Below, piece by piece: positions 19,273-30,928 of a DNA stretch of 34,735 nucleotides (the first letter of the stretch is position 1; every line of letters starts with the position of its first letter). Source of the DNA: Streptomonospora mangrovi (GTDB taxonomy: Bacteria; Actinomycetota; Actinomycetes; Streptosporangiales; Streptosporangiaceae); the NCBI RefSeq assembly GCF_027604915.1, contig NZ_JAJAQC010000060.1:1-34735 (forward strand). The letters are read 5' to 3'. Made by a program: the position numbers and the translations under genes. Under the pieces are notes generated by a model that worked only from the letters and a program-made list of their open reading frames with translations, did no database searches and was not told the origin of the DNA.

Positions 19273-19458
19273 CTAGGAGCGGTCCGGGGCGTCGTCTTTC
19301 ACATCGCGAAGGAAGGACGCCCACTCGCGTGCGGGGAACGAGAGGAACCCGAGGTGCCGCTGCTGGGAGTCCCGCACAAAGGTCCGAGGGCCTTCGGACA
19401 CTTCGACGCAGTTGCCTCCATGGTTGGAGCTGTAGCTACTTTTGTGCCACTCACGCAT
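19273..19458 (-). CDS. DUF397 domain protein
   Basis: This 61-aa protein has the classic DUF397 pattern: W-x-KSSYSSNHGGNCVEV at the start, a VRDS-like segment, then LGFLSFPAREWASFL. In streptomycetes, DUF397 proteins are paired with XRE/DUF5753 regulators (WhiJ-type systems) that affect development. Its ATG overlaps the end of the XRE gene by eight bases, so translation is coupled. How these small proteins act is not settled; binding to the partner regulator is inferred from the family. Confidence 0.93.
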   Translation of the reverse strand: MREWHKSSYSSNHGGNCVEVSEGPRTFVRDSQQRHLGFLSFPAREWASFLRDVKDDAPDRS

Positions 19459-20266
19459 TGCCGTCCATCTCTTCCTCTAGTTTCTTGATCATGGCCAGGG
19501 AGTCCTCGGGGGACGACGCGGAAGCCTGGAGCGACCCGAACAGGCTCATGATTTCAGCGACCTTCTCCGCCTTCTCGAAGGTCTCCCCACCAAGGGCGTG
19601 CTCCGCGTACACCACGGACTGGTTCGCGTTCAACGTGTTGATCCGGAGGGGGAGCGTCAGCCCTGGCGTAATGGGAGCGTCGCGAAGGACCTGGAGATAG
19701 ATCGTCTCCTCCTCGATCAGCGCCGCGATATGCCCCAACTGGTCCTTCATGATCCTGCCGCTTCCGACGACCGTGGCGAGCGCTGTCTCGCGGACGACGA
19801 ACCACATCACCGGACGCTTGTCCGCCAAGGCGGGAAGCCGCTCAGCCCGAGCGCGAGCGATCTGCATCAACTCGTCACGGGTATGGCGGTTCCTCCGGCC
19901 CAAGAGCATGGAGTAGGCGTACTCCGCCGTCTGCAAGAGTCCGGGAACGAAAAGTGGCTCGTATTCGCGAATCTCGATGGCCTGCCGTTCCAACAGCACG
20001 GCATTGCGGAACCAATCAGGGACTTGGCGCTGGTTCGTCAAGTCCTCAAACAATCGCCGAAGGGTGCCGCCCGTGGAGAGAGCGGCATCGAGCGCGTCCG
20101 CTAGGTCTGCTTTGGGCTTTCGCGTGGCACGTTCCAGACTACTGATAGTCGACGCTGCCACGTTGACGCGATTGGCCAACTGGTCCTGCATCAGCCCTGC
20201 TGACGAGCGTATGCGCCGCAGTTCATCGCCCCATTGAATGTACTGGGCGTGCTGCTTCTCCGCCAT
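19451..20266 (-). CDS. XRE-family regulator with DUF5753 domain
   Basis: This 271-aa DNA-binding regulator has a helix-turn-helix at about 12-66 (ELRRIRSSAGLMQDQLANRV, then VAASTISSLERATRKPK). The DUF5753 ligand or partner domain runs from about 85 to the end (DWFRNAVLLERQAIEIREYE, VPGLLQTAEYAYSML). This architecture is abundant in actinomycetes and always tied to DUF397 proteins. I chose ATG 20266 because GAGG lies nine bases upstream; ATG 20275 is possible. The GC content is visibly lower than in most neighbours, which fits a mobile or recently gained unit. Two 8-bp direct repeats in the promoter region (20282-20310) are candidate self-operators. Confidence 0.93.
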   Translation of the reverse strand: MAEKQHAQYIQWGDELRRIRSSAGLMQDQLANRVNVAASTISSLERATRKPKADLADALDAALSTGGTLRRLFEDLTNQRQVPDWFRNAVLLERQAIEIREYEPLFVPGLLQTAEYAYSMLLGRRNRHTRDELMQIARARAERLPALADKRPVMWFVVRETALATVVGSGRIMKDQLGHIAALIEEETIYLQVLRDAPITPGLTLPLRINTLNANQSVVYAEHALGGETFEKAEKVAEIMSLFGSLQASASSPEDSLAMIKKLEEEMDGNA

Positions 20267-20410: not shown

Positions 20411-20731
20411 ATGGAAAACACAGAAGGGCGGGAATGTCGGCTTTGCACCAGGCCCAACAACACTGAGGAGGTATGCGGGTACTGCGGAAATCCTTTGAGC
20501 GCCAACGAGACGCTCCCTCCGCTCCCGCATAAAAGACCCGTCCGACGGGTCCGACGCACCTCCCGGATCCGGCCCTACGTGCACCGGCACTTCCGGTACC
20601 ACGCACTAACCGACTCCCCTCCCCCGGCCACTCCCTGGCCGGAACGAGGGTTGAGGGAGGAGGGCGCCGTCGCGGGCGCTCTCCCAACGGCGGTCGGCTG
20701 TCTCACCAGCACTGCGGCCACCGCCGGATAA
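20411..20731 (+). CDS. Small four-cysteine zinc-ribbon-like protein
   Basis: I do not recognise this 106-aa protein. Residues 9-25 form CRLC-x9-CGYC, a compact zinc-ribbon-like four-cysteine site. After it comes a basic stretch (KRPVRRVRRTSRIRPYVHRHFRYH) and a low-complexity tail. The start ATG 20411 has GGAG seven bases upstream. It is divergent from the XRE/DUF397 pair with 144 bp between, so both may share control by the XRE protein. The zinc site plus basic patch suggests nucleic acid binding (inference). The C-terminal third reads like poorly conserved sequence, so the true end is less certain. Confidence 0.55.
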   Translation: MENTEGRECRLCTRPNNTEEVCGYCGNPLSANETLPPLPHKRPVRRVRRTSRIRPYVHRHFRYHALTDSPPPATPWPERGLREEGAVAGALPTAVGCLTSTAATAG

Positions 20732-20835: not shown

Positions 20836-21264
20836 TCAGCGGATGACCGCGCCCTTGGACAGGGAGACGTACCTGTCGTTCGCGCGCAGGGTGGCGATGT
20901 CCTCAAGAGATTTGTCCTTCGCCGTGGCTCCCTTGGCGACGTCCGTGATACGGCGCTCGCCGTCCTTCCTCTCCACGGCGGCCGAGGCCAACTTCTCTGC
21001 CACGGTCGCGGCGGCCTGCGTCGGGTCGACGCCGGCGGCGGGGGTGTCGAGCCCGATCGCCTCCATACCGGGGACGCCGCCCACGGACGAGACGAGGGCG
21101 GCCCTGGTCATTCCCCGCGCAGCGTCCTCAACCAGGGACGCCATCTCCGCCCCCGACTGCACCGCCTGCTCGCCGTCCGTCTGCGGCGCCTCGGGCGGCG
21201 GCGAGGTGACCTCGGCGGACACCCGTGCGGCGAGCAGGTCTCGTTCTTCTTCGGCAGACGCCAT
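20836..21264 (-). CDS. Hypothetical helical protein, partner of the 388-aa gene
   Basis: I do not recognise this 142-aa protein. It is acidic and Ala-rich at the start (MASAEEERDLLAARVSAEV), with a middle MASLVEDAARGMTRAAL helix. Its second half runs DPTQAAATVAEKLASAAVERK, then a lysine-containing segment (KGATAKDKSLEDIATLRAND). It has no signal or membrane segment and no cysteine. The start ATG 21264 has GAGAGG six bases upstream. It lies 99 bp downstream of the 388-aa gene and is followed by a strong terminator, so the two form one transcription unit. The DP-x3-A-x2-VA-x2-L pattern loosely recalls the third helix of the module described for the neighbouring proteins. Confidence 0.65.
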   Translation of the reverse strand: MASAEEERDLLAARVSAEVTSPPPEAPQTDGEQAVQSGAEMASLVEDAARGMTRAALVSSVGGVPGMEAIGLDTPAAGVDPTQAAATVAEKLASAAVERKDGERRITDVAKGATAKDKSLEDIATLRANDRYVSLSKGAVIR

Positions 21265-21363
21265 TGTCGCCTCTCACTTCTCATTCGCGGCAGGTGAATA
21301 CAGACGGGGCAGGGTCCGCAGAAGATCATCGTCGTTCACCGGAAGTTCGACAACCCGAAAGGA

Positions 21364-22530
21364 CTATGCGGTGCGTCCCCTCCCGGCGCCCGAGGACGGC
21401 GGCTGTTGACGGGCGGCGGATAGCATTTTTCTCCGCCGGGCGCTCCGCCTCGCCCGCTTGCCCGGACTGTCATGGAGGGCCGCCGTCTGCCGCAGGTACG
21501 AGGCGGTCACCCGGTCCAGGTTGTCCGCCATGCTCCTGCCCTTGGCGGTCTGGCGCTTGACGTCGGCCGTCCTGCCTTCGTACTGGAGGACCCCCTGAGC
21601 GGCCAGTTCGCGTGCCTCGCGGGCGCCGCCGGGTTCATGGTCGGCGGTGACGCCGCCGAACCGCCAGTAGCCCGGCTCGTGGTACTCGGTGCTGTTCACC
21701 TCGGCCATGGCCTTGTCGAGCCACGGCCGCATCCGCCGCGCCACCTCAGCGTCACCGCGCGACTCGGCGGTCACCACCAGGGCGGCGAACTCGTGCGCCT
21801 TCTTCCTTAAGTCGCCGACTTCCTTCCGCATGTCCTTAACGGCCGCCTGGTAGGCGTCCCGCCGCTCCAAGACGTATGCCTCGGTCGTCGGGGAAACGCG
21901 TCCCAGCACCGGAAGCAGGTGCTGGAAGTACTCGGCCTCGGAGCGGCAGTGCAGGTCCACTCCCGCCCCTCTGCCCGCCCCTGCTCCGGACGCCGAAAGG
22001 GCGGACTCCGCATGCCCGCTCCGCACGGCGGCGTCCCCCCGGACCGCGAGCCGTGCGGCCTCGCGCTCCCGGTACTCGGCGACCGTCGTCGCGAGTTTCC
22101 CGGCGAACGCGTTGACATTCGCCGTGCGCTCTTCGACCATCGCCGTCCTGCGGACGTACAGATCCGCGCCCATCTCCGCCCTCTCGGCGGCGGTGCGGGG
22201 CGGGTCGGTCGAGTAGGCCCACATGCCGGGCTCGTGGAAGGCGCCCTCGTCGGCAAGGCGCCCACCCTCGCGCAGCAGCGCCCGCAGGCCCTCGGCGGCG
22301 GCGCGGGAGCCGTCGGCGTCGGAAAGGGGTGTGTCGGGCAGGCGGCCGACGATCCCCTTCAATTCCGCCAGCCGCTCCACCACGGGACCGGCCGCCTTCC
22401 GCAGTTCGCGGGCGGCGGCCTGGTAGCCCTTCCGGGCGTCGGTGTACTTCCCCCGGAGCACGTCGGAGACCTGGCCCAGGGTCGGCGAAAGCATCGTGTG
22501 GTAGTCGCCCTCGGTGGAGTGGATGTACAT
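21364..22530 (-). CDS. Hypothetical protein with two tandem helical modules
   Basis: I do not recognise this 388-aa protein, but it is an internal duplication. Module A spans about residues 9-155 and module B about 199-348. Matching points are DYHTMLSPTLGQVS (9-22) and EYFQHLLPVLGRVS (200-213); DARKGYQAAARELRKAAG (31-48) and ERRDAYQAAVKDMRKEVG (222-239); FHEPGMW (98-104) and YHEPGYW (283-289); then a final long helix in each. The offset is about 185-190 residues. The tail is very basic (KRARRSARRRKML). It has no signal peptide or membrane span. The start ATG 22530 has GGGAGG seven bases upstream. The same module seems to occur in the proteins at 24748-25374 and 25402-26541, on the other side of icmA. 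Confidence 0.75.
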   Translation of the reverse strand: MYIHSTEGDYHTMLSPTLGQVSDVLRGKYTDARKGYQAAARELRKAAGPVVERLAELKGIVGRLPDTPLSDADGSRAAAEGLRALLREGGRLADEGAFHEPGMWAYSTDPPRTAAERAEMGADLYVRRTAMVEERTANVNAFAGKLATTVAEYREREAARLAVRGDAAVRSGHAESALSASGAGAGRGAGVDLHCRSEAEYFQHLLPVLGRVSPTTEAYVLERRDAYQAAVKDMRKEVGDLRKKAHEFAALVVTAESRGDAEVARRMRPWLDKAMAEVNSTEYHEPGYWRFGGVTADHEPGGAREARELAAQGVLQYEGRTADVKRQTAKGRSMADNLDRVTASYLRQTAALHDSPGKRARRSARRRKMLSAARQQPPSSGAGRGRTA

Positions 22531-22678
22531 CGCTCGCCTCCCGTGTCGCCCCGCGCGCAGCACCGGCGGCGGAGTCCACAGGATCATGCTGCACGGCGGC
22601 CCCCGGCACAACCCCGCCGGAGGCCGCGCGGTGCGCCGGGCGCCCGGCCGTGCCCGCAGCCGCCCGCACGCGCGCAAG

Positions 22679-22709
22679 GGGGCGCGCGGACGGTGCGTCC
22701 GCGCGCCCC
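22679..22709 (-). terminator. Perfect 13-bp hairpin after icmA
   Basis: GGGGCGCGCGGAC (22679-22691) and GTCCGCGCGCCCC (22697-22709) form a perfect 13-bp stem with a five-base loop, about 53 bases after the icmA stop on the minus strand. Only two T bases follow (CTTGCG), but stem strength makes termination likely. Confidence 0.75.
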
Positions 22710-22762
22710 TGGGTCGCTGCCTCCCGCGCGGCGCGCCGGGATGCCGCCGGGATGCCCTCGGG

Positions 22763-24544
22763 CTAGAGCCGGGGGTCCTCGGTGTAGGTGCCGAACTCCT
22801 GGCCCATCGTGCCGCAGATCTCGCCGAGGGTGGCCTCCACGCGGGCGGCCTGGAGGATGACCGGGATCAGATTGGGCCGGGCGGGGTCGCGCACGGCGTC
22901 AAGCAGGTCGGCCAGTGCGGCGTCGACGGCGGCCTGGTCGCGCTTGGCGCGGCGCTCGGCCAGCACCCGCTTCTGCTCCTCCTCGACCTCGTGGCTGATG
23001 CGCAGGGTCTCGACCTCGCCAGTGATGGTGGAGGTGTGGCAGTTGACGCCGACGATGCGCTTCTCGTCCTTCTCCAGCGCCTGCTGGTACTGGAACGCCG
23101 ACTCGGCGATCTCGGAGGTGAACCAGCCGTTCTCGATGCCCGCCAGGATACCCGAGGTGATGGGGCCGATGGCGTGCTCGGCGGCGTCGCGGCCGGTCGC
23201 GGCGGCGCCGCCCCCGGCGCGCTCGGCGCGCTCGGCCTCCTTGGCGGCGCCCATGCGCTCGATGCGCTCGAAGATCCGCTCGGCCTCCTCCTCCAGCCGG
23301 TCGGTCAGCGCCTCGACGTAGTAGGAACCGCCGAGCGGGTCGGCGACGTTGACCACGCCGGTCTCCTCCATGATCACCTGCTGGGTGCGCAGGGCGATCT
23401 CGGCGGAGGTGGCGGTGGGCAGCGCCAGGGTCTCGTCCAGGGCGTTGGTGTGCAGGGAGTTGGTGCCGCCCAGCACCGCCGACAGCGCCTCCACGGCGGT
23501 GCGCACCACGTTGTTGTAGGGCTGCTGGGCGGTGAGGGAGACGCCGGCGGTCTGGGTGTGGAAGCGCAGCCACATGGCGCGGTCGTCGGTGGCGCCGAAG
23601 CGGTCGCGCATCCAGCGGGCCCAGATGCGGCGGGCCGCGCGGAACTTGGCGATCTCCTCGAAGAAGTCGATGTGGGCGTCGAAGAAGAACGACAGCCCGC
23701 GCGCCAGCTTGTTGACGTCGAGCCCGCGCGAGAGGCCCAGTTCGACGTAGCCGAACCCGTCGGCGAGCGTGAACGCCAACTCCTGCGCGGCCGTGGCCCC
23801 GGCCTCGCGGATGTGGTAGCCCGACACCGACAGCGGCTTGAACGCCGGGATGTTCTCGGTGCAGTACTCCATCAGGTCGCCGATGAGGCGCAGGTGCGGC
23901 TCGGGCGGGTACAGCCACTCCTTCTGGGCGATGTACTCCTTGAAGATGTCGGTCTGGAGGGTGCCGTTGAGGGTGGTGATGTCGGCGCCCTGGCGTTCGG
24001 CGGCCACCAGGTACATGCAGAAGACGGGGATGGCCGGGCCGCTGACGGTCATGGACGTGGTGGTCTCGTCCAGCGGGATGCCGTCGAACAGGACGTCCAT
24101 GTCGGCGGCGGAGTCGACGGCCACGCCGCAGTGGCCGACCTCGCCCAGGGCCATGGCGGCGTCGGAGTCGTAGCCCATGAGGGTGGGCATGTCGAAGGCC
24201 ACCGAGAGCCCGCCGCCGCCGGAGGCCAGGATCATGCGGTAGCGCTCGTTGGTCTGGTGGGCGTTGCCGAAGCCGGCGAACTGGCGGATGGTCCACGGCC
24301 GCCCCCGGTAGCCCGTGGGGTACAGGCCGCGGGTGAAGGGGAACTCCCCCGGCCACCCGATGCGCTCGAACCCGGGGACGTCGGCTCCGGGCGGGGGGCC
24401 GTAGACGGGGTCGACCGGTTGCCCGGACAGGGTGGTGCGGGGTTCGGGCGCGGCGGCGCCGCGCCCCTGGCGCGGTGCCCGCGCGGCGTCATAGCGCGCC
24501 TGCCAGCGGGCCCGGCCCGCGGCGATCTCCTCAGCCTTGGCCAT
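22763..24544 (-). CDS. icmA: Acyl-CoA mutase large subunit, isobutyryl-CoA mutase type
   Basis: This is the 593-aa substrate-binding subunit of a coenzyme-B12 acyl-CoA mutase. It ends before any cobalamin-binding domain (no DxHxxG motif), so it needs a separate small subunit, not present here. The diagnostic residues are Phe89 in TIRQFAGF and Gln207 in EYIAQKEW. Methylmalonyl-CoA mutase has Tyr89 and Arg207 there, while isobutyryl-CoA mutase has Phe and Gln. This points to interconversion of isobutyryl-CoA and n-butyryl-CoA, linking valine breakdown and fatty acid building blocks. MeaB, mce and a thiolase lie upstream. The start ATG 24544 has TACTAT six bases upstream and overlapping palindromes, so it is probably leaderless and repressor-controlled. 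Substrate specificity is inferred from two residues and overall similarity. Confidence 0.92.
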
Positions 24545-24550
24545 GCCCCA

Positions 24551-24556
24551 ATAGTA
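24551..24556 (-). promoter_or_regulatory. Predicted -10 box of icmA (leaderless)
   Basis: TACTAT (minus strand) is a good -10 match six bases before the icmA ATG. No standard -35 box is present 17 bases upstream; an operator-like AT-rich patch occupies the spacer. Confidence 0.55.
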
Positions 24557-24580
24557 GGACGTCCAACTATATTTGTATAG
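24553..24580. promoter_or_regulatory. Two overlapping palindromes at the icmA promoter
   Basis: AGTAGGACGTCCAACT (24553-24568) is an imperfect palindrome around a perfect GGACGTCC core (7 of 8 arm positions pair). It overlaps the -10 box. CTATATTTGTATAG (24567-24580) is a perfect 5-bp inverted repeat around TTTG. The second element is almost pure A/T in a very GC-rich chromosome. Together they look like operators for a dimeric repressor, for example of the TetR, GntR or MarR type. The regulator is not known. Confidence 0.55.
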
Positions 24581-24591
24581 GAACCGCGCGA

Positions 24592-24613
24592 CGCACCGGT
24601 GCGCGCCGGTGCG
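24592..24613 (-). repeat. Hairpin between the helical-protein operon and icmA
   Basis: CGCACCGG (24592-24599) and CCGGTGCG (24606-24613) form a perfect 8-bp stem with a six-base loop, just upstream of the icmA operator region. On the minus strand it lies after the 24748-28153 gene run and may end that transcript. Confidence 0.45.
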
Positions 24614-24747
24614 CAAGGAGCGCAGCGCGGGGCGGCGGGCACCGACGCGCATGGAGCCCGCCGCGCCGCCGCTAAAGGCGGGGCGCCCGCTGCTCGGTGC
24701 CGGTGTCCGGGCGGTGCCGGGCGGAGTCGGCGGCCGCCGCTCGCGCG

Positions 24748-25374
24748 TCATTCCCGTCCGGCGCCGCGCCCCTCGGCGCGTCGAGGCGCGCGTCGGCGGC
24801 CGGGGAGGCGGCGCCGCCCTGGCCGGCGCCGGGGACGGAGCGGCCCCGCTCCGTCGCGTCGAGCGCCTCCCGCCGCCCGGCCCCGCGCGGTTTCCCGCAC
24901 CAGGTCCGCCGCCTGGTCGGCCAGGTCCAGGACCGCGTCGGTGAGCGCGCTCCTGGCCGCGCGCATGACCGCCCGCCCGTAACCGGCCCGGGTGAGGTGG
25001 GAGATGTGCCGGAGCGGGTCGCGCCGGGGCGGCTCCAGCCTGACCTGCTGGTCGGCGTAGAGGCTGCCCGCCAGGACGTCCAGGCGGTACTGGGCCTTCT
25101 CCACCTCCTCGCCGTAGGGGCGGAGGCTGCGGCGCGCCTCGTCGGGCAGACCGGCCGACCGCTCCGCGATCTCGCGGATGAGGGCGCCCAGCTCCGCGGC
25201 CTCGGCGGCGGCAGCCTCCCGCGCCGCCGCGCGGACCTCCCAGGCGCCCTGGAAGCGGTACACGGTGTGGGCGTAGCTCCAGTTCTCGTGGCCGGGAGCC
25301 GCGCGTGTCGGCTGCGGGTCGTAGGAGGTGTACGGCGCCAGCGCCGAGTCGTCGAGGCGGTCGTGGTCGGACAT
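24748..25374 (-). CDS. Hypothetical helical-module protein, probable C-terminal frameshift
   Basis: I do not recognise this 208-aa protein. It contains one copy of the module shared with its neighbours. The N-terminus APYTSYDP with GHENWSY resembles SPYLGYEK with ESSY in the upstream protein. Helices follow at about 40-75 and 85-110, then RLEPPRRDPLRH (112-123) and a long helix (GYGRAVMRAARSALTDAV). After residue 163 (ETARG) the sequence becomes Arg/Gly/Pro-rich as if out of frame. In the +1 frame from the GGGG run near 24886-24890 a normal-looking tail (RREALDATERGRSVPGAG, ending EQRAPRL at 24672) continues. One surplus base would explain this. The start ATG 25374 has GGAG seven bases upstream, 27 bp after the preceding gene. 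Confidence 0.65.
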   Translation of the reverse strand: MSDHDRLDDSALAPYTSYDPQPTRAAPGHENWSYAHTVYRFQGAWEVRAAAREAAAAEAAELGALIREIAERSAGLPDEARRSLRPYGEEVEKAQYRLDVLAGSLYADQQVRLEPPRRDPLRHISHLTRAGYGRAVMRAARSALTDAVLDLADQAADLVRETARGRAAGGARRDGAGPLRPRRRPGRRRLPGRRRAPRRAEGRGAGRE

Positions 25375-25401
25375 GGCGGCTCCGGCGGGGGGAGGGGTGG
25401 G

Positions 25402-26541
25402 TCAGCGGCGGTGCGTTGGCCGGTCTCCGCCGGACGGGAACCCGCGGCGACTCGCGGGCTGGATGACCGCGCGCGTGGAGCGACGCGTCGGCGTCTCGGA
25501 AGGTCGGGCGGCGGTGGAGCGGCGCGGCGCGTCGGTGGCCACCGCGCCGGTGGGGCGGGCGGCGGCCTCGGCGGCCGTCTCGGATTTCGCCTCCAACGGG
25601 TCACCACCGCGCGAGCGCCGACTCCGCTCCGTCAACTCGGCGGCGTCCCGCGTCTGCCTGATGACCTTCCCGATCTCCCGCGCCAGCGCGCGCTTGGCGC
25701 GCTCCACCGTCGCCACGGGGTCCGGCTCCTGGTCCCCCCGGGTGGGCGGCGGCTCCAGCGTGAAGCGGTCGTTGCGCACCTCCTTCCGGAGTTCCGTCCA
25801 GCGCGGGTCCAGCCGCAGGGCGTCGTCGTTCTTCTCCGCCTGGAGGTCGCGCATCGCCCGCCCCCGCTCCACCCGGACCTCCTTGTAGCGGTCCAGCAGA
25901 AGCGCGTAGGAGCGCAGCAGAGGCGCCTGGTCCGGGACCGCGCGCACCGCGTTCACGTGGTGGCGGATCGGCCTGTCGACGTCGGCGAACTCGTGGCGGT
26001 GGGCGTTCGCCTCGTTGCGGCCGTACAGGGCCGCCGCGAGTTCCTGCTCGGCCGCCCTCAGCACCGCGCGCGTGTCCTTGGCCGCGGCCGCAATCCGTTC
26101 GGTGTCGTAGCCGACGGCGGTGGTGTTGGCCGAGAGCGTGCGCTTGGCGCCGTCGACGACCGCCGCGCCGTAGGAGCGTCTCGTCGGGTGCCGCCACCGC
26201 TGCCGTCGGCCCGCCTGGAGTTGCAGCGTGGGCGCCTCATAGGGTGCGGCGTTCACCCGGTCGGGGTCGCGGTACGCCTCCGACAGCCGCCGCCAGGCGG
26301 CGGAGAGGTCAGGGTTCGCGGAGGATTCCACCAGCCCGCGGACCTTCTCCTCGAACGCCGTGTGGAAGTCCGCAAGCTCCTTGGCCGCCTCGCCGAGGAC
26401 CTCCCTCGCCTTGGCGTAGCCCTCCCGGGCCTTGACGTTCTCCCCCCGCAGGTCGACGTAGGAGCTTTCACCGGGCTGCCGCTTTTCGTAACCGAGGTAG
26501 GGACTGATCGACGCGTCTTCGACGGGAGGGTCAATGGTCAT
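25402..26541 (-). CDS. Hypothetical protein with two helical modules and basic tail
   Basis: I do not recognise this 379-aa protein. It appears to carry two copies of the module. The first has helix 36-74 (KAREGYAKAREVLGEAAKEL), AAWRRLSEAYRDPDRV, APYEAPTLQLQ (99-109) and helix 123-172 (SYGAAVVDGAKRTLSA). The second has helix 211-240 (YALLLDRYKEVRVERGRAM), FTLEPPPTRG (260-269), then DPVATVERAKRALAREIGKV (274-293). The last 75 residues are Arg/Ser/Thr/Pro-rich and basic. There is no signal peptide, membrane span or cysteine. The start ATG 26541 has GGAG eight bases upstream. It is the closest relative in the window of the gene that follows it after 27 bp. Confidence 0.75.
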   Translation of the reverse strand: MTIDPPVEDASISPYLGYEKRQPGESSYVDLRGENVKAREGYAKAREVLGEAAKELADFHTAFEEKVRGLVESSANPDLSAAWRRLSEAYRDPDRVNAAPYEAPTLQLQAGRRQRWRHPTRRSYGAAVVDGAKRTLSANTTAVGYDTERIAAAAKDTRAVLRAAEQELAAALYGRNEANAHRHEFADVDRPIRHHVNAVRAVPDQAPLLRSYALLLDRYKEVRVERGRAMRDLQAEKNDDALRLDPRWTELRKEVRNDRFTLEPPPTRGDQEPDPVATVERAKRALAREIGKVIRQTRDAAELTERSRRSRGGDPLEAKSETAAEAAARPTGAVATDAPRRSTAARPSETPTRRSTRAVIQPASRRGFPSGGDRPTHRR

Positions 26542-26695
26542 GGCTGGCTCCGTGGGGCGGGGTGGTCGTGAACGGCGGGGAGGCGGGAATAGGGGTCGGG
26601 TGGTGGTCATGCCGGTGGGCCGCCTCGGCGGACGCCTCCCGCCACCCGGCGTCCAGCGAGCGGACCGGGCGGCGCGGCGGCGCGGGCGGGTCCGG

Positions 26696-27370
26696 CTACG
26701 CCTTCGCGGATTGCCCCTGGCCTTCGCGGGCCTGCGGGACAGGGGCGCGCGAGGGCTGGGTCCGCCCGGGGCGCGCCTCGCCGCCGTCCGCGCTCGCCCT
26801 GCGGAACCTCCCCCTGACCTCGTCCGCGATTCTGCTCGCGAGCGGGCTCTGCTCGGCCGGGGGCTCCTCGGCCTTGCCCCGCCCGTCGAACTCGGCCTGA
26901 ACGTCCCAAATGGTGCGGATGTCCGCGCGCATGCCTTCGGTCTGCTGGGTGATCCGCCTCGTGTCCGCCCGCAGCGCCTCGGTCATGGCGTCCACGGTCT
27001 CCTTCGGACGCCCCCACGACAGCGCCCGGTCGACCACCCCGTTGCGCCGGCGCAACTCATCCAGCGCACCGCCGCGCAGCGGGCTGCCCCGCTGCGGGGA
27101 CTGTGCGGTCCCGCTCTGCGTCACCAGGCTTTCGAGGCTCCCGGCGCGGGGGTGCGCGGAGTTCCTGGCCTGGTCCAGCAGGCTCCGCGCATTCGGCATC
27201 AGGGCGGACAGCTCCCGGCGCGCCGCCGACCAGTCGCGCACGGCGGCTTCCAAGTCCGCGGCCGCGCCACCGAGGGCTTCGCGCCTGCGGCCCTTGACCT
27301 GGTTCAACAACTGGTTCAGGTACTCCAGCCCTTCGGTGCTGGGACCGTCGGGGTTACCGCTCTCGACCAT
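26696..27370 (-). CDS. Hypothetical helical protein (operon member)
   Basis: I do not recognise this 224-aa protein. It is largely helical: EYLNQLLNQVKGRRREALGG, DLEAAVRDWSAARRELSAL, then DELRRRNGVVDRALSWGRPK followed by TVDAMTEALRADTRRITQQT. A charged, Arg/Gln-rich tail ends in QSAKA. It has no signal peptide, membrane span or cysteine. I chose ATG 27370 (GGAGG six bases upstream) over ATG 27397. The order helix, helix, short Pro-containing linker, helix matches the module layout of the downstream genes, though I see no clear Glu-Pro motif, so membership in the same family is only possible. It lies 141 bp from the gene before it and 154 bp from the one after it. Confidence 0.7.
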   Translation of the reverse strand: MVESGNPDGPSTEGLEYLNQLLNQVKGRRREALGGAAADLEAAVRDWSAARRELSALMPNARSLLDQARNSAHPRAGSLESLVTQSGTAQSPQRGSPLRGGALDELRRRNGVVDRALSWGRPKETVDAMTEALRADTRRITQQTEGMRADIRTIWDVQAEFDGRGKAEEPPAEQSPLASRIADEVRGRFRRASADGGEARPGRTQPSRAPVPQAREGQGQSAKA

Positions 27371-27511
27371 GCCGCCTCCGTTGTCCGACACGTGCACGTT
27401 GGGATGGCGGACGGGGGCGGGGTCCGGAACCGGATGATGGCGTGCGGGCGGCCGAAGGGCAACCCCGGGGACCGGCTCCGGCCTGCGCGCGCCCCGGACC
27501 CGCCCCCGGGC

Positions 27512-28153
27512 TCAGCGGGTGCGGCGGCGCGCGGAGCCGGGGTCCGTGCGCGGGGTCCGGGCCGCCGGCGCGGTTTGCGGCCGCTGGGCGGCGGCCTTCT
27601 TCGGCGACTTCGGCAGTCCCGCGCCGTCGGCCCCGCGCGCCTTTGCGCGCGCGGCCGCCTCGATCGCGCCGCGGGTGGTGCGGACGCCGTCGCGGGCGTC
27701 CACGGTCGCCGCGACCAGGGTGCCGTGGCGGTCCTCCAGGCTCTTGCGGGCCTGGTTCACCTGGGCGGCGGCGTCGGCCACCACCTGCCGGGAGTGCTCC
27801 ACGGGCTCGGCGCCGGGGCCGGGCGGGCGCGAGGCGAGGACCACGGCCTCCGGCGGGCGGGCCGCCTCGGCGATGCGCTCCCGCAGGGCGGACAGGTCGG
27901 CCAGTCCGGCGGGGCGGTCCGCGCCCAGGGCCTCGACCTCGCGCTGGGTCCGGGCGGCCTGCTCGTCGGCCCGCCGGGCGTCGTCGCCGCCCGCGCCCCA
28001 GGCCGCGCGGGCGTGGTCGTACTCCTCCAGCGCCCGCTCCAGCAGCCCGACCTCCGGCGCGGGCCGGGTCCCTCCGGCCCCGGCCGTGCGCAGCCGTTGC
28101 AGGTCCGCCTGGATGGCCGTGGCGTCCACGGCGCCGAAGTGGTCGTCGGGCAT
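27512..28153 (-). CDS. Hypothetical helical protein (first gene of the run)
   Basis: I do not recognise this 213-aa protein. It has a helical N-terminal half (LLERALEEYDHARAAWGAGG, then AARTQREVEALG), a Pro-rich linker (ASRPPGPGAEPVEHSR) and a long helix (VVADAAAQVNQARKSLEDRH). A basic tail rich in Lys/Arg/Pro follows (KSPKKAAAQRPQ, ending SARRRTR). No signal, membrane span or cysteine. The start ATG 28153 has GGAAGG six bases upstream. It is probably the first gene of a four-gene run ending at 24748. The GAEP linker before the final helix could be a degenerate version of the Glu-Pro motif in the other proteins. The DARRADEQ region is too irregular to assign to a known family. Confidence 0.7.
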   Translation of the reverse strand: MPDDHFGAVDATAIQADLQRLRTAGAGGTRPAPEVGLLERALEEYDHARAAWGAGGDDARRADEQAARTQREVEALGADRPAGLADLSALRERIAEAARPPEAVVLASRPPGPGAEPVEHSRQVVADAAAQVNQARKSLEDRHGTLVAATVDARDGVRTTRGAIEAAARAKARGADGAGLPKSPKKAAAQRPQTAPAARTPRTDPGSARRRTR

Positions 28154-28389
28154 GCCGCACCTTCCGTCGTGGGGGGTCTGCGAGCGGCGGGGTCGGGGCC
28201 GAGGACGATGATCGCGCCTGGCGGCCGTCCTGGCAATCTTCCCGGCCCGGCCCGCCCTCCCGCGCCCGGTTCGCCCTTCCCCGCACGGCCCGCGCGGCGG
28301 CGGGCCGGGGGGCTCGCGACACTGCACCGCGTCGCCGCGCCCGCCTCGTGCGCACGAACGCGGGCGAGTGCGGCCCGGCTCCGGCGCCC

Positions 28390-30265: not shown

Positions 30266-30928
30266 TCAGCCGGGGCCGGTTGCGGGCTCCCGGTCGCCGG
30301 TGGCGCCGTCGATCTGCTCGCGGAGGATGTCGAGGTGGCCGGCGTGGCGGGCGGTCTCCTCGACCATGTGGAGGAGGATCCAGCGCAGGGACACCGGGCC
30401 GAGTTCGTCGTGGTCGACGGTGTGGTCGAGGGGGTGGGCGGCGACCGCCGCGCGGGAGCGGGCGCACTCGCGCTCGTAGTCGGCGACCACCGCCGACAGC
30501 GGGGTGTCGTCGGGGACGGTGAAGGTGGACTCCACGGCCTCCAGGAGCGGGCGCAACTCCTTCTCGACCCCGGGGTCGGCGCGCAGCACGCGCTGGAACC
30601 AGTTGCGTTCGACAACGGTGAGGTGGCGCAGGACCCCGGCCACGGTGGTGCCGGAGGGCACCAGGCGGCGCCGGGCGGCGGAGTCGGACAGCCCGCGCGC
30701 CTTGTGCGCGGCGGCCCAGCGCAGGTAGTCGAGGAACGCGGTGAGGGTGGCGCGCTCGCCGGCGGCGGTGGTGCCCAGCACCCACGGGGCGGTCTGCTCA
30801 AGGGTGAGCGGGCCGGGCAGCGGCGCGGTGTCGCCGACGGGGCGGGTGGGGTCGACGGGGACGGCGGGGTCGGCGGGAGCGGAGGGGTCAGAGGAGCCGG
30901 CGGAGGGGAGCGGTGTGGCGTCCGTCAT
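30266..30928 (-). CDS. DinB/DUF664 family protein
   Basis: This 220-aa protein has the DinB-like four-helix bundle of the DUF664 group, which in actinobacteria includes mycothiol-dependent enzymes. The probable metal ligands are His102 (VLRHLTVVERNWF) and the pair His195/His198 in HMVEETARHAGHLDILREQIDG. The first 40 residues are a Pro/Ala/Asp-rich disordered leader. A catalytic role is unproven; thiol transferase or detoxification activity is inferred from the family. The start ATG 30928 has TAGATT seven bases upstream and no Shine-Dalgarno sequence. It lies between thiolase and meaB on the same strand but seems to have its own promoter. Confidence 0.9.
   Translation of the reverse strand: MTDATPLPSAGSSDPSAPADPAVPVDPTRPVGDTAPLPGPLTLEQTAPWVLGTTAAGERATLTAFLDYLRWAAAHKARGLSDSAARRRLVPSGTTVAGVLRHLTVVERNWFQRVLRADPGVEKELRPLLEAVESTFTVPDDTPLSAVVADYERECARSRAAVAAHPLDHTVDHDELGPVSLRWILLHMVEETARHAGHLDILREQIDGATGDREPATGPG

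What the first reader, a model, noticed from the sequence alone, without database searches (positions are those of the whole stretch)
20836..28153. A family of tandem helical-module proteins flanking an acyl-CoA mutase gene
Three proteins of no recognised family share one architecture: a helix with a Y-x2-A-x2-x-L-type pattern, a second helix, a short linker with an aromatic or aliphatic residue then Glu-Pro/Glu-Ala, and a final helix with A/G-x2-A-K/R-x2-L. I count five linkers: RLEPPRRDP (24748-25374); PYEAP and TLEPPP (25402-26541); FHEPGMW and YHEPGYW (21364-22530). Two proteins are internal duplications. Tails are Arg-rich and none has a signal peptide, membrane span or cysteine. Two further helical genes (26696-27370, 27512-28153) precede them in the same run. 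They form two transcription units on either side of icmA, interrupting a mce-meaB-icmA neighbourhood known from other actinomycetes. This is the best candidate for an undescribed system; function is unknown.
Basis: partly seen in the sequence, partly recalled or inferred. Interest (0 to 1): 0.82.

Follow-up and report, generated by a model that had tools for sequence, protein, structure and literature searches.

The report
Fast-diverging orphan gene cluster around icmA
Two closely related actinomycete species carry a set of unstudied small-protein genes that wrap around an ordinary metabolic gene and differ far more between the species than the genes beside them, so this looks like a local, fast-changing gene family rather than part of the metabolic pathway.

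Summary
The genes are real and reach no curated Pfam or NCBIfam cut-off, but "one five-module family" is only partly right. P5 (21364-22530) is an internal duplication (E 1e-14). A close relative (G003) has the same modules as separate genes, and P5's inter-module linker aligns with the intergenic DNA between two of them, so P5 is probably a fused pair. Glu-Pro-x-x-Trp is kept in all five P5-type modules known. P4 matches P3's first half. A duplicated P3 and homology of P3/P4 to P5 are not supported: a coiled-coil control scores nearly as well. New: (i) a promoter-like element, TTG-N21-ATSATC (defined after the fact), upstream of P1, P2, P5, P6, not icmA; (ii) G003 has the syntenic cluster at 38-63% amino-acid identity while MarR, icmA and malE are 98.6-99.6%, with sharp edges inside P1 and at both icmA ends; (iii) no convincing relative in the 327-341 family genomes searched with four profiles, nor at 13 other icmA loci. 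Most likely a lineage-restricted, co-regulated orphan family evolving by duplication, fusion, loss and allele exchange; icmA a bystander. The biochemical role (coiled-coil proteins with basic tails, perhaps nucleic-acid-binding, perhaps conflict-related) is inferred.

The parts
27512..28153 (-). P1, 213 aa, basic tail; first 152 codons 99.3% identical (nt) to G003, the rest 67%
28207..28236 (-). promoter-like element of P1 (TTG-N21-ATCATC)
26696..27370 (-). P2, 224 aa; 43% aa identity to G003 orthologue
27433..27462 (-). promoter-like element of P2
25402..26541 (-). P3, 379 aa; first module homologous to P4; G003 orthologue is frame-broken, its two pieces 63% and 44% identical
24748..25374 (-). 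P4, 208 aa, single module with very basic tail; only a 20-residue match found in G003
22763..24544 (-). acyl-CoA mutase large subunit (icmA-like, MM_CoA_mutase; no B12 domain matched); conserved island, 98.6% aa to G003; judged a bystander
21364..22530 (-). P5, 388 aa, two EPxxW modules fused
22582..22611 (-). promoter-like element of P5
20836..21264 (-). P6, 142 aa; 48% aa identity to G003 orthologue
21324..21353 (-). promoter-like element of P6
20411..20731 (+). possible small C-x2-C ... C-x2-C (zinc-ribbon-like, by eye) ORF in an island 92-98% identical (nt) to G003; no Pfam family
19451..20266 (-). XRE regulator with DUF5753; 39% aa to its G003 counterpart
19273..19458 (-). DUF397 protein beside the XRE regulator

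Best explanation
P1-P6 are a lineage-restricted set of small proteins, several of them transcribed from near-identical promoters, in two blocks on either side of icmA. The P5-type genes multiply by tandem duplication and merge by fusion. Alleles of the blocks have been exchanged or have diverged fast, with edges inside P1 and at the two ends of icmA, which itself was not exchanged. Shown: the P5 duplication, single-module P5-type genes in a close relative, the P3-P4 pair, the shared promoter-like sequence, the sharp conserved/divergent mosaic, absence from the other icmA loci examined. Inferred: the fusion direction; that exchange rather than local hypermutation made the mosaic; that the products are coiled-coil bundles which assemble through their long helices and bind nucleic acid or another polyanion with their basic tails; that turnover reflects conflict (phage or rival strains). 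icmA is most likely only the landmark beside which the set inserted.
For: P5 halves align at E 1e-14. G003 has three P5-type genes a, b, c in tandem after icmA, and the P5 junction aligns with the b-c intergenic DNA including a CGGA[GC]TCCGCCC stretch. TTG-N21-ATSATC: 4 hits in the window, all upstream of P1, P2, P5, P6; 0.14 expected, 0 of 100 shuffles reach 4. 6 hits in the G003 stretch, 0.04 expected, at P1, P2, P3, a, b, P6. No hit in the 13 other icmA loci L040-L052. Divergence: pS 0.17-0.48 in the pieces of P1C, P2, P3, P5, P6 and 0.63 in XRE, against 0.02-0.18 in P1N, MarR, malE, icmA, Trx, ACAT, MeaB, DinB. The 100-bp map falls from 98 to 65 at about 27,700 and between there and 19.2 kb exceeds 90 only over icmA and 20.4-20.8 kb. 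Gaps are multiples of three in 15 of 15 cases in P2, P6 and the P1 tail.
Against: No function was tested. The element was defined from these same upstream regions, so its shuffle odds are flattering; window P3 and P4 and G003 c lack an exact copy. P3's first part has pS 0.17, no higher than DinB's 0.18. Amino-acid identity in the true frame is not higher than in other frames for P2, P6 and P3N, though it is for P5m1/b and the P1 tail, so weak constraint or decay is possible; G003 a, c and P3 have broken frames and P4 is nearly gone there. In P5m1/b only 1 of 3 gaps is a multiple of three, the comparison including the tail region. Two exchange tracts stopping at the ends of icmA is an unexplained coincidence. 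Only two species are known to carry the set. Tails are basic (R+K 0.22-0.40 of the last 45 residues, 0.05-0.18 in the rest), which does not by itself show nucleic-acid binding. The junction alignment has large gaps and no significance test.
Confidence: 0.45

Rival explanations
1. Decaying lineage-specific genes or remains of an old integrated element: proteins under little or no selection that drift fast.
For: Nearly equal change at all codon positions in P2 (0.385, 0.376, 0.385) and dN/dS 0.5-1.3 in the pieces of P1C, P2, P3, P5, P6; broken frames of a, c and P3 and near loss of P4 in G003; the MarR-icmA gap holds unrelated TPR-type genes in 4 of 4 congeners.
Against: Relaxed selection on protein does not by itself raise silent divergence two- to tenfold above the neighbours (P3's first part is an exception). 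All six genes have open frames in the window; gaps keep frame in 15 of 15 cases in P2, P6 and the P1 tail; the promoter-like element is kept. No relative in PHROGs below E 0.02, none of P5 or P3 in phages and plasmids, none of P6 in plasmids. Integrases and attachment sites were not searched for.
Confidence: 0.25
2. Functional partners of the acyl-CoA mutase (chaperone, scaffold or compartment proteins), as their position suggests.
For: They flank icmA on both sides in both species.
Against: icmA, MarR and MeaB occur without them at 13 of 13 other loci; icmA lacks the shared element; icmA is 98.6% identical while they are 38-63%.
Confidence: 0.07
3. Secreted ESX (type VII) helical effectors or WXG100-like proteins.
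For: The P5 profile's best outside hit of 11, and one other, are WXG100 proteins.
Against: None of P1-P6 matches WXG100 in Pfam at E up to 5; the predicted helix runs straight through the stretch aligned to the WXG turn, which reads LRG in P5; the match covers one helix; E 3.6e-5 in one of 341 genomes is marginal. ESX genes and export motifs were not searched for.
Confidence: 0.06

Closest known systems
XRE-DUF5753/DUF397 regulator pairs of Streptomyces (PMC10364602: outline and abstract seen; PMC6262351: search listing with start of abstract)
   Same: An HTH-DUF5753 gene followed by a DUF397 gene lies at the end of block 2; the XRE gene shares the divergence.
   Different: It is a neighbour; P1-P6 match neither domain.
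PE/PPE families of mycobacteria (PMC3319526: search listing with start of abstract; comparison otherwise recalled)
   Same: A multigene family with high sequence variation and apparent lack of constraint, in an actinobacterium.
   Different: No PE or PPE hit for P1-P6 in Pfam; no secretion link known here.
WXG100 (PF06013)
   Same: One helix of the P5 module resembles the second helix of two WXG100 proteins.
   Different: No W-x-G, no Pfam match, different length and predicted architecture.

Membership tests
   P5m1-P5m2 and P3m1-P4 are significant. P3m1-P3m2 is not (244 of 500); P5 against P3m1, P3m2 and P4 gives 10 to 450 of 500 global shuffles (best P5m2-P4, 10 of 500); hhalign probability 3%; DivIVA control close.
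   E-P-x-x-W is in 5 of 5 P5-type modules, 2 from the window and 3 from G003; not kept in the P3 orthologue and not aligned between P3 and P4.
   Same order of elements in P5 and P3, but the P3 model has pLDDT 44 and no superposition was made.
WXG100 / ESX substrate | PF06013 match and W-x-G turn | tested here: not met
Anti-phage defence system | Match to a PADLOC model | tested here: not met
   P1-P6 no family at E up to 1; the G003 P2 orthologue has 10 weak hits, best E 0.003.
Phage- or plasmid-borne gene | Relative in PHROGs, phage or plasmid records | tested here: not met
   PHROGs best E 0.024; no tblastn match for P5 and P3 in phages and plasmids, P6 in plasmids. P1, P2, P4 were not searched in those records.
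Acyl-CoA mutase accessory genes | Conserved co-occurrence with icmA | tested here: not met
   13 of 13 other icmA loci (20 kb each) lack P1-P6 at tblastn E 1e-4.
XRE-DUF397 pair | HTH/DUF5753 gene next to a DUF397 gene | tested here: met
   (19273-20266 only).

The most novel reading that the evidence does not exclude
A self-diversifying recognition or conflict locus of a new kind: a co-regulated set of interchangeable helical modules with basic tails whose alleles are swapped as two cassettes around a fixed housekeeping gene, so that strains differ in modules and perhaps in phage resistance or kin recognition.
Probability: 0.12. Interest if true: 0.75.

Novelty: new variant of a known kind. 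Interest (0 to 1): 0.42.

Why it matters
If the reading holds, the locus is a compact natural experiment: two close species share the same ordered genes, promoter-like elements and flanks, yet the proteins have diverged to about half identity while most neighbours are nearly identical. That lets one ask whether orphan genes of actinomycetes are kept by diversifying selection or are decaying, and how tandem orphan genes fuse into longer proteins.

Tried and rejected
Mutase partner: rejected as above. Prophage or plasmid gene: no support in the searches made. WXG100: one-helix resemblance only. Defence system: no PADLOC match. Dispersed regulon: the 27 other sites of the GTTG form in the own genome were taken as stretches of 1.0-1.3 kb. 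By the script's test 15 of 27 lie in a coding-like frame and 7 have a downstream coding-like start; none of those products matched the profiles of P5, P2, P6 or P3's N-terminus (P1 and P4 profiles were not used). Superfamily of all modules: some pairs looked significant against shuffles (P2-P3m1 2, P2-P4 6, G003b-P3m1 4, G003a-G003P2 0, G003P2-G003P3C 0 of 1000), while other pairs of the same families did not (G003P2-P3m1 196, G003a-P3m1 208 of 1000). Best scores against a DivIVA coiled-coil were close (cross-family maxima 62-65; DivIVA 59 with P5, 53 with P3m1/P4, 61 with P2, 70 with P1), so it was not claimed; P2 as a P3/P4 relative stays open. Solved structures: P5 profile best E 0.019 to a designed helical protein, P3 best E 0.16, P6 best E 0.59; Foldseek on the P5 model had no PDB match at E 0.001. 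Weak outside hits of the profile and protein searches (11, 4 in 65, 9 in 78, 2 in 79, 1 in 103, 2 in 104) were treated as chance; 5 of the 11 were read, two of them WXG100, and the other hits were not read. Papers: none held three of icmA, isobutyryl-CoA mutase, MeaB, MarR; two searches were seen as listings, with only PMC10364602 opened (outline and abstract). A first value for the second part of P3 (33.5% identity, pS 0.77) came from a reading frame that I set wrongly; one search gives 43.5% and 0.36, which the report uses.
Full report
What is there. On the minus strand, between a MarR gene and a thioredoxin/TPR gene, lie P1 (27512-28153), P2 (26696-27370), P3 (25402-26541), P4 (24748-25374), icmA (22763-24544), P5 (21364-22530), P6 (20836-21264), an XRE-DUF5753 regulator (19451-20266) and a DUF397 gene (19273-19458). 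P1-P6 have no NCBIfam or PADLOC family, and only weak or sub-cut-off hits in Pfam (best E 0.0034, 17.6 bits against a cut-off of 90) and PHROGs (best E 0.024).

Checking the module claim. The two halves of P5 align over their length with the loops FHEPGMW and YHEPGYW in register (E 1e-14; 0 of 500 in both shuffle controls). P3's first module and P4 are related (0 of 500 global, 1 of 500 windowed shuffles; alignment). P3's second half is not detectably a repeat of the first (244 of 500). P5 modules against P3m1, P3m2 and P4 range from 10 to 450 of 500 global shuffles. The best cross-family scores, 62-65, are close to those of a coiled-coil control, DivIVA (53-61 against P5, P3m1/P4 and P2; 70 against P1). 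P2 against P3m1 and P4 is the strongest open case (0-2 of 500; but 196 and 319 of 1000 for the G003 P2). The Glu-Pro-x-x-Trp loop is kept in all five P5-type modules seen, two in the window and three in G003. It is not a shared linker with P3/P4: the residues claimed there are not aligned with each other and are not kept in the P3 orthologue. AlphaFold gave P5 two copies of long helix, short helix, loop, long helix (best model pLDDT 69.6, the other four 44-53); the P3 model, made with P4 as its only other row, has the same order of elements but is poor (pLDDT 44). Foldseek with the P5 model had no PDB match at E 0.001.

A close relative. G003, of the same genus, has icmA at 98.6%, MarR at 99.4% and malE at 99.6% amino-acid identity and the same gene order, while the pieces of P1C, P2, P3, P5 and P6 are 38-63% identical and XRE 39%. 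Silent differences are raised too: pS 0.36-0.48 for P1C, P2, P6, the P5 pieces and the second part of P3, 0.17 for the first part of P3, 0.63 for XRE, against 0.02-0.18 for P1N, MarR, malE, icmA, Trx, ACAT, MeaB and DinB. The first part of P3 thus does not exceed the most diverged flank, DinB (0.18). At this GC content a pS of 0.4 is near saturation (inference). The 100-bp identity map shows sharp steps: 97-100 from 27.7 to 28.9 kb; 52-82 from 25.2 to 27.7 kb; little or no aligned counterpart from 24.6 to 25.2 kb (P4); 86-100 over icmA; 50-84 from 20.8 to 22.8 kb; 92-98 from 20.4 to 20.8 kb; 40-68 over XRE/DUF397. The first 152 codons of P1 are 99.3% identical and the rest 67%. Exchange of divergent alleles in tracts that end in P1 and at icmA explains this best; why icmA is spared so exactly is unexplained, and local hypermutation is not excluded.

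Duplication, fusion and loss. G003 has three P5-type genes in tandem after icmA (a, b, c). b matches the first half of P5 (58%), c the second (38-44% in two pieces), and the DNA of the P5 junction aligns, with gaps, with the b-c intergenic stretch. So P5 most likely arose by fusion of two tandem genes; the direction is inferred. a, c and the P3 orthologue have broken frames in G003, and only a 20-residue match to P4 was found; sequencing error cannot be excluded.

A shared promoter-like element. 81-102 bases upstream of the starts of P1, P2, P5 and P6 in the window, and of P1, P2, P3, a, b and P6 in G003, is TTG-N21-ATSATC, a -35/-10-like pair with a 17-base spacer. The window has 4 matches, all of these, against 0.14 expected; the G003 stretch has 6 against 0.04 expected. 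The pattern was drawn from these same regions, so the odds flatter it; the P1 copy is identical in both because that DNA is. Window P3 and P4 and G003 c have no exact copy; icmA, MarR and the window XRE gene lack it too. None of the 13 other icmA loci has it. A slightly longer form has 30 matches in the own genome, 3 of them here; of the other 27, 15 lie in coding-like frames, and none was found to precede a related protein. The set on both sides of icmA is therefore likely regulated together and apart from icmA (inference).

Are they proteins? Codon-position GC of P1-P6 is that of coding sequence. All 15 gaps in the P2, P6 and P1-tail alignments are multiples of three, but in P5m1/b only 1 of 3, and P3N has none. 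Amino-acid identity in the reading frame is the highest of six frames for P5m1/b and the P1 tail, but not for P2, P6 and P3N. dN/dS is 0.5-1.3 in these pieces against 0.04-0.48 in the flanks other than P1N. The frames are kept but the sequence is weakly constrained or diversified; decay is a serious rival.

Distribution. P3 protein: 2 of 60 genomes, the own one and G003. P5 protein: 2 of 6 genus members. P5 profile: strong in those two among 341 family genomes (11 weak others) and in the own one among 396 of the phylum (2 weak others). P3 N-terminal profile: 2 strong of 338. P6: 2 strong of 335. P2: 2 strong of 327. P1 protein: 2 strong of 149. P4 was not searched. These searches score only some first-look candidates per genome, so distant relatives could be missed. 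Pattern scans of 84,980 species genomes with the P3-N and P5m1 orthologue pairs (two peptide patterns each), and of viral contigs with the latter, confirmed no relative; the tool may leave out genomes very near the window's. At 13 other icmA loci MarR, icmA and Trx are present and P1-P6 absent. The four congeners have one or two TPR-type genes between MarR and icmA (6 ORFs seen; 5 tested, all with a TPR_12 match, 2 above Pfam's cut-off), and three other genera have long secreted-looking ORFs, which I take from memory for chitinases, between MeaB and MarR. The neighbourhood is thus insertion-prone.

Verdict. The finding is a real, undescribed, lineage-restricted gene set with unusual evolution; its link to the mutase is most likely incidental, and its function is open. 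XRE-DUF397 pairs, one of which ends block 2, are reported as pleiotropic regulators in Streptomyces rather than toxin-antitoxin pairs (PMC10364602, abstract).

Noticed in passing
19273-20266: XRE-DUF5753 and DUF397 pair; the XRE protein is 39% identical to its G003 counterpart at the same place, where two DUF397-like ORFs follow (by eye).
   Followed up: partly
20411-20731 (+): Small C-x2-C/C-x2-C ORF in a 400-base island 92-98% identical to G003 between two divergent blocks; no Pfam family.
   Followed up: partly
L040-L043, between MarR and icmA: Four congeners carry one or two TPR-type genes (349-462 aa) in the slot that P1-P4 occupy in the window.
   Followed up: partly
L045, L046, L048, between MeaB and MarR: Long ORFs that look like chitinases (recognised from memory, no family search) inserted in the same conserved neighbourhood in three other genera.
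   Followed up: no
30266-30928: DinB/mycothiol-S-transferase gene, 79-82% identical to G003, more diverged than MeaB and ACAT beside it.
   Followed up: no
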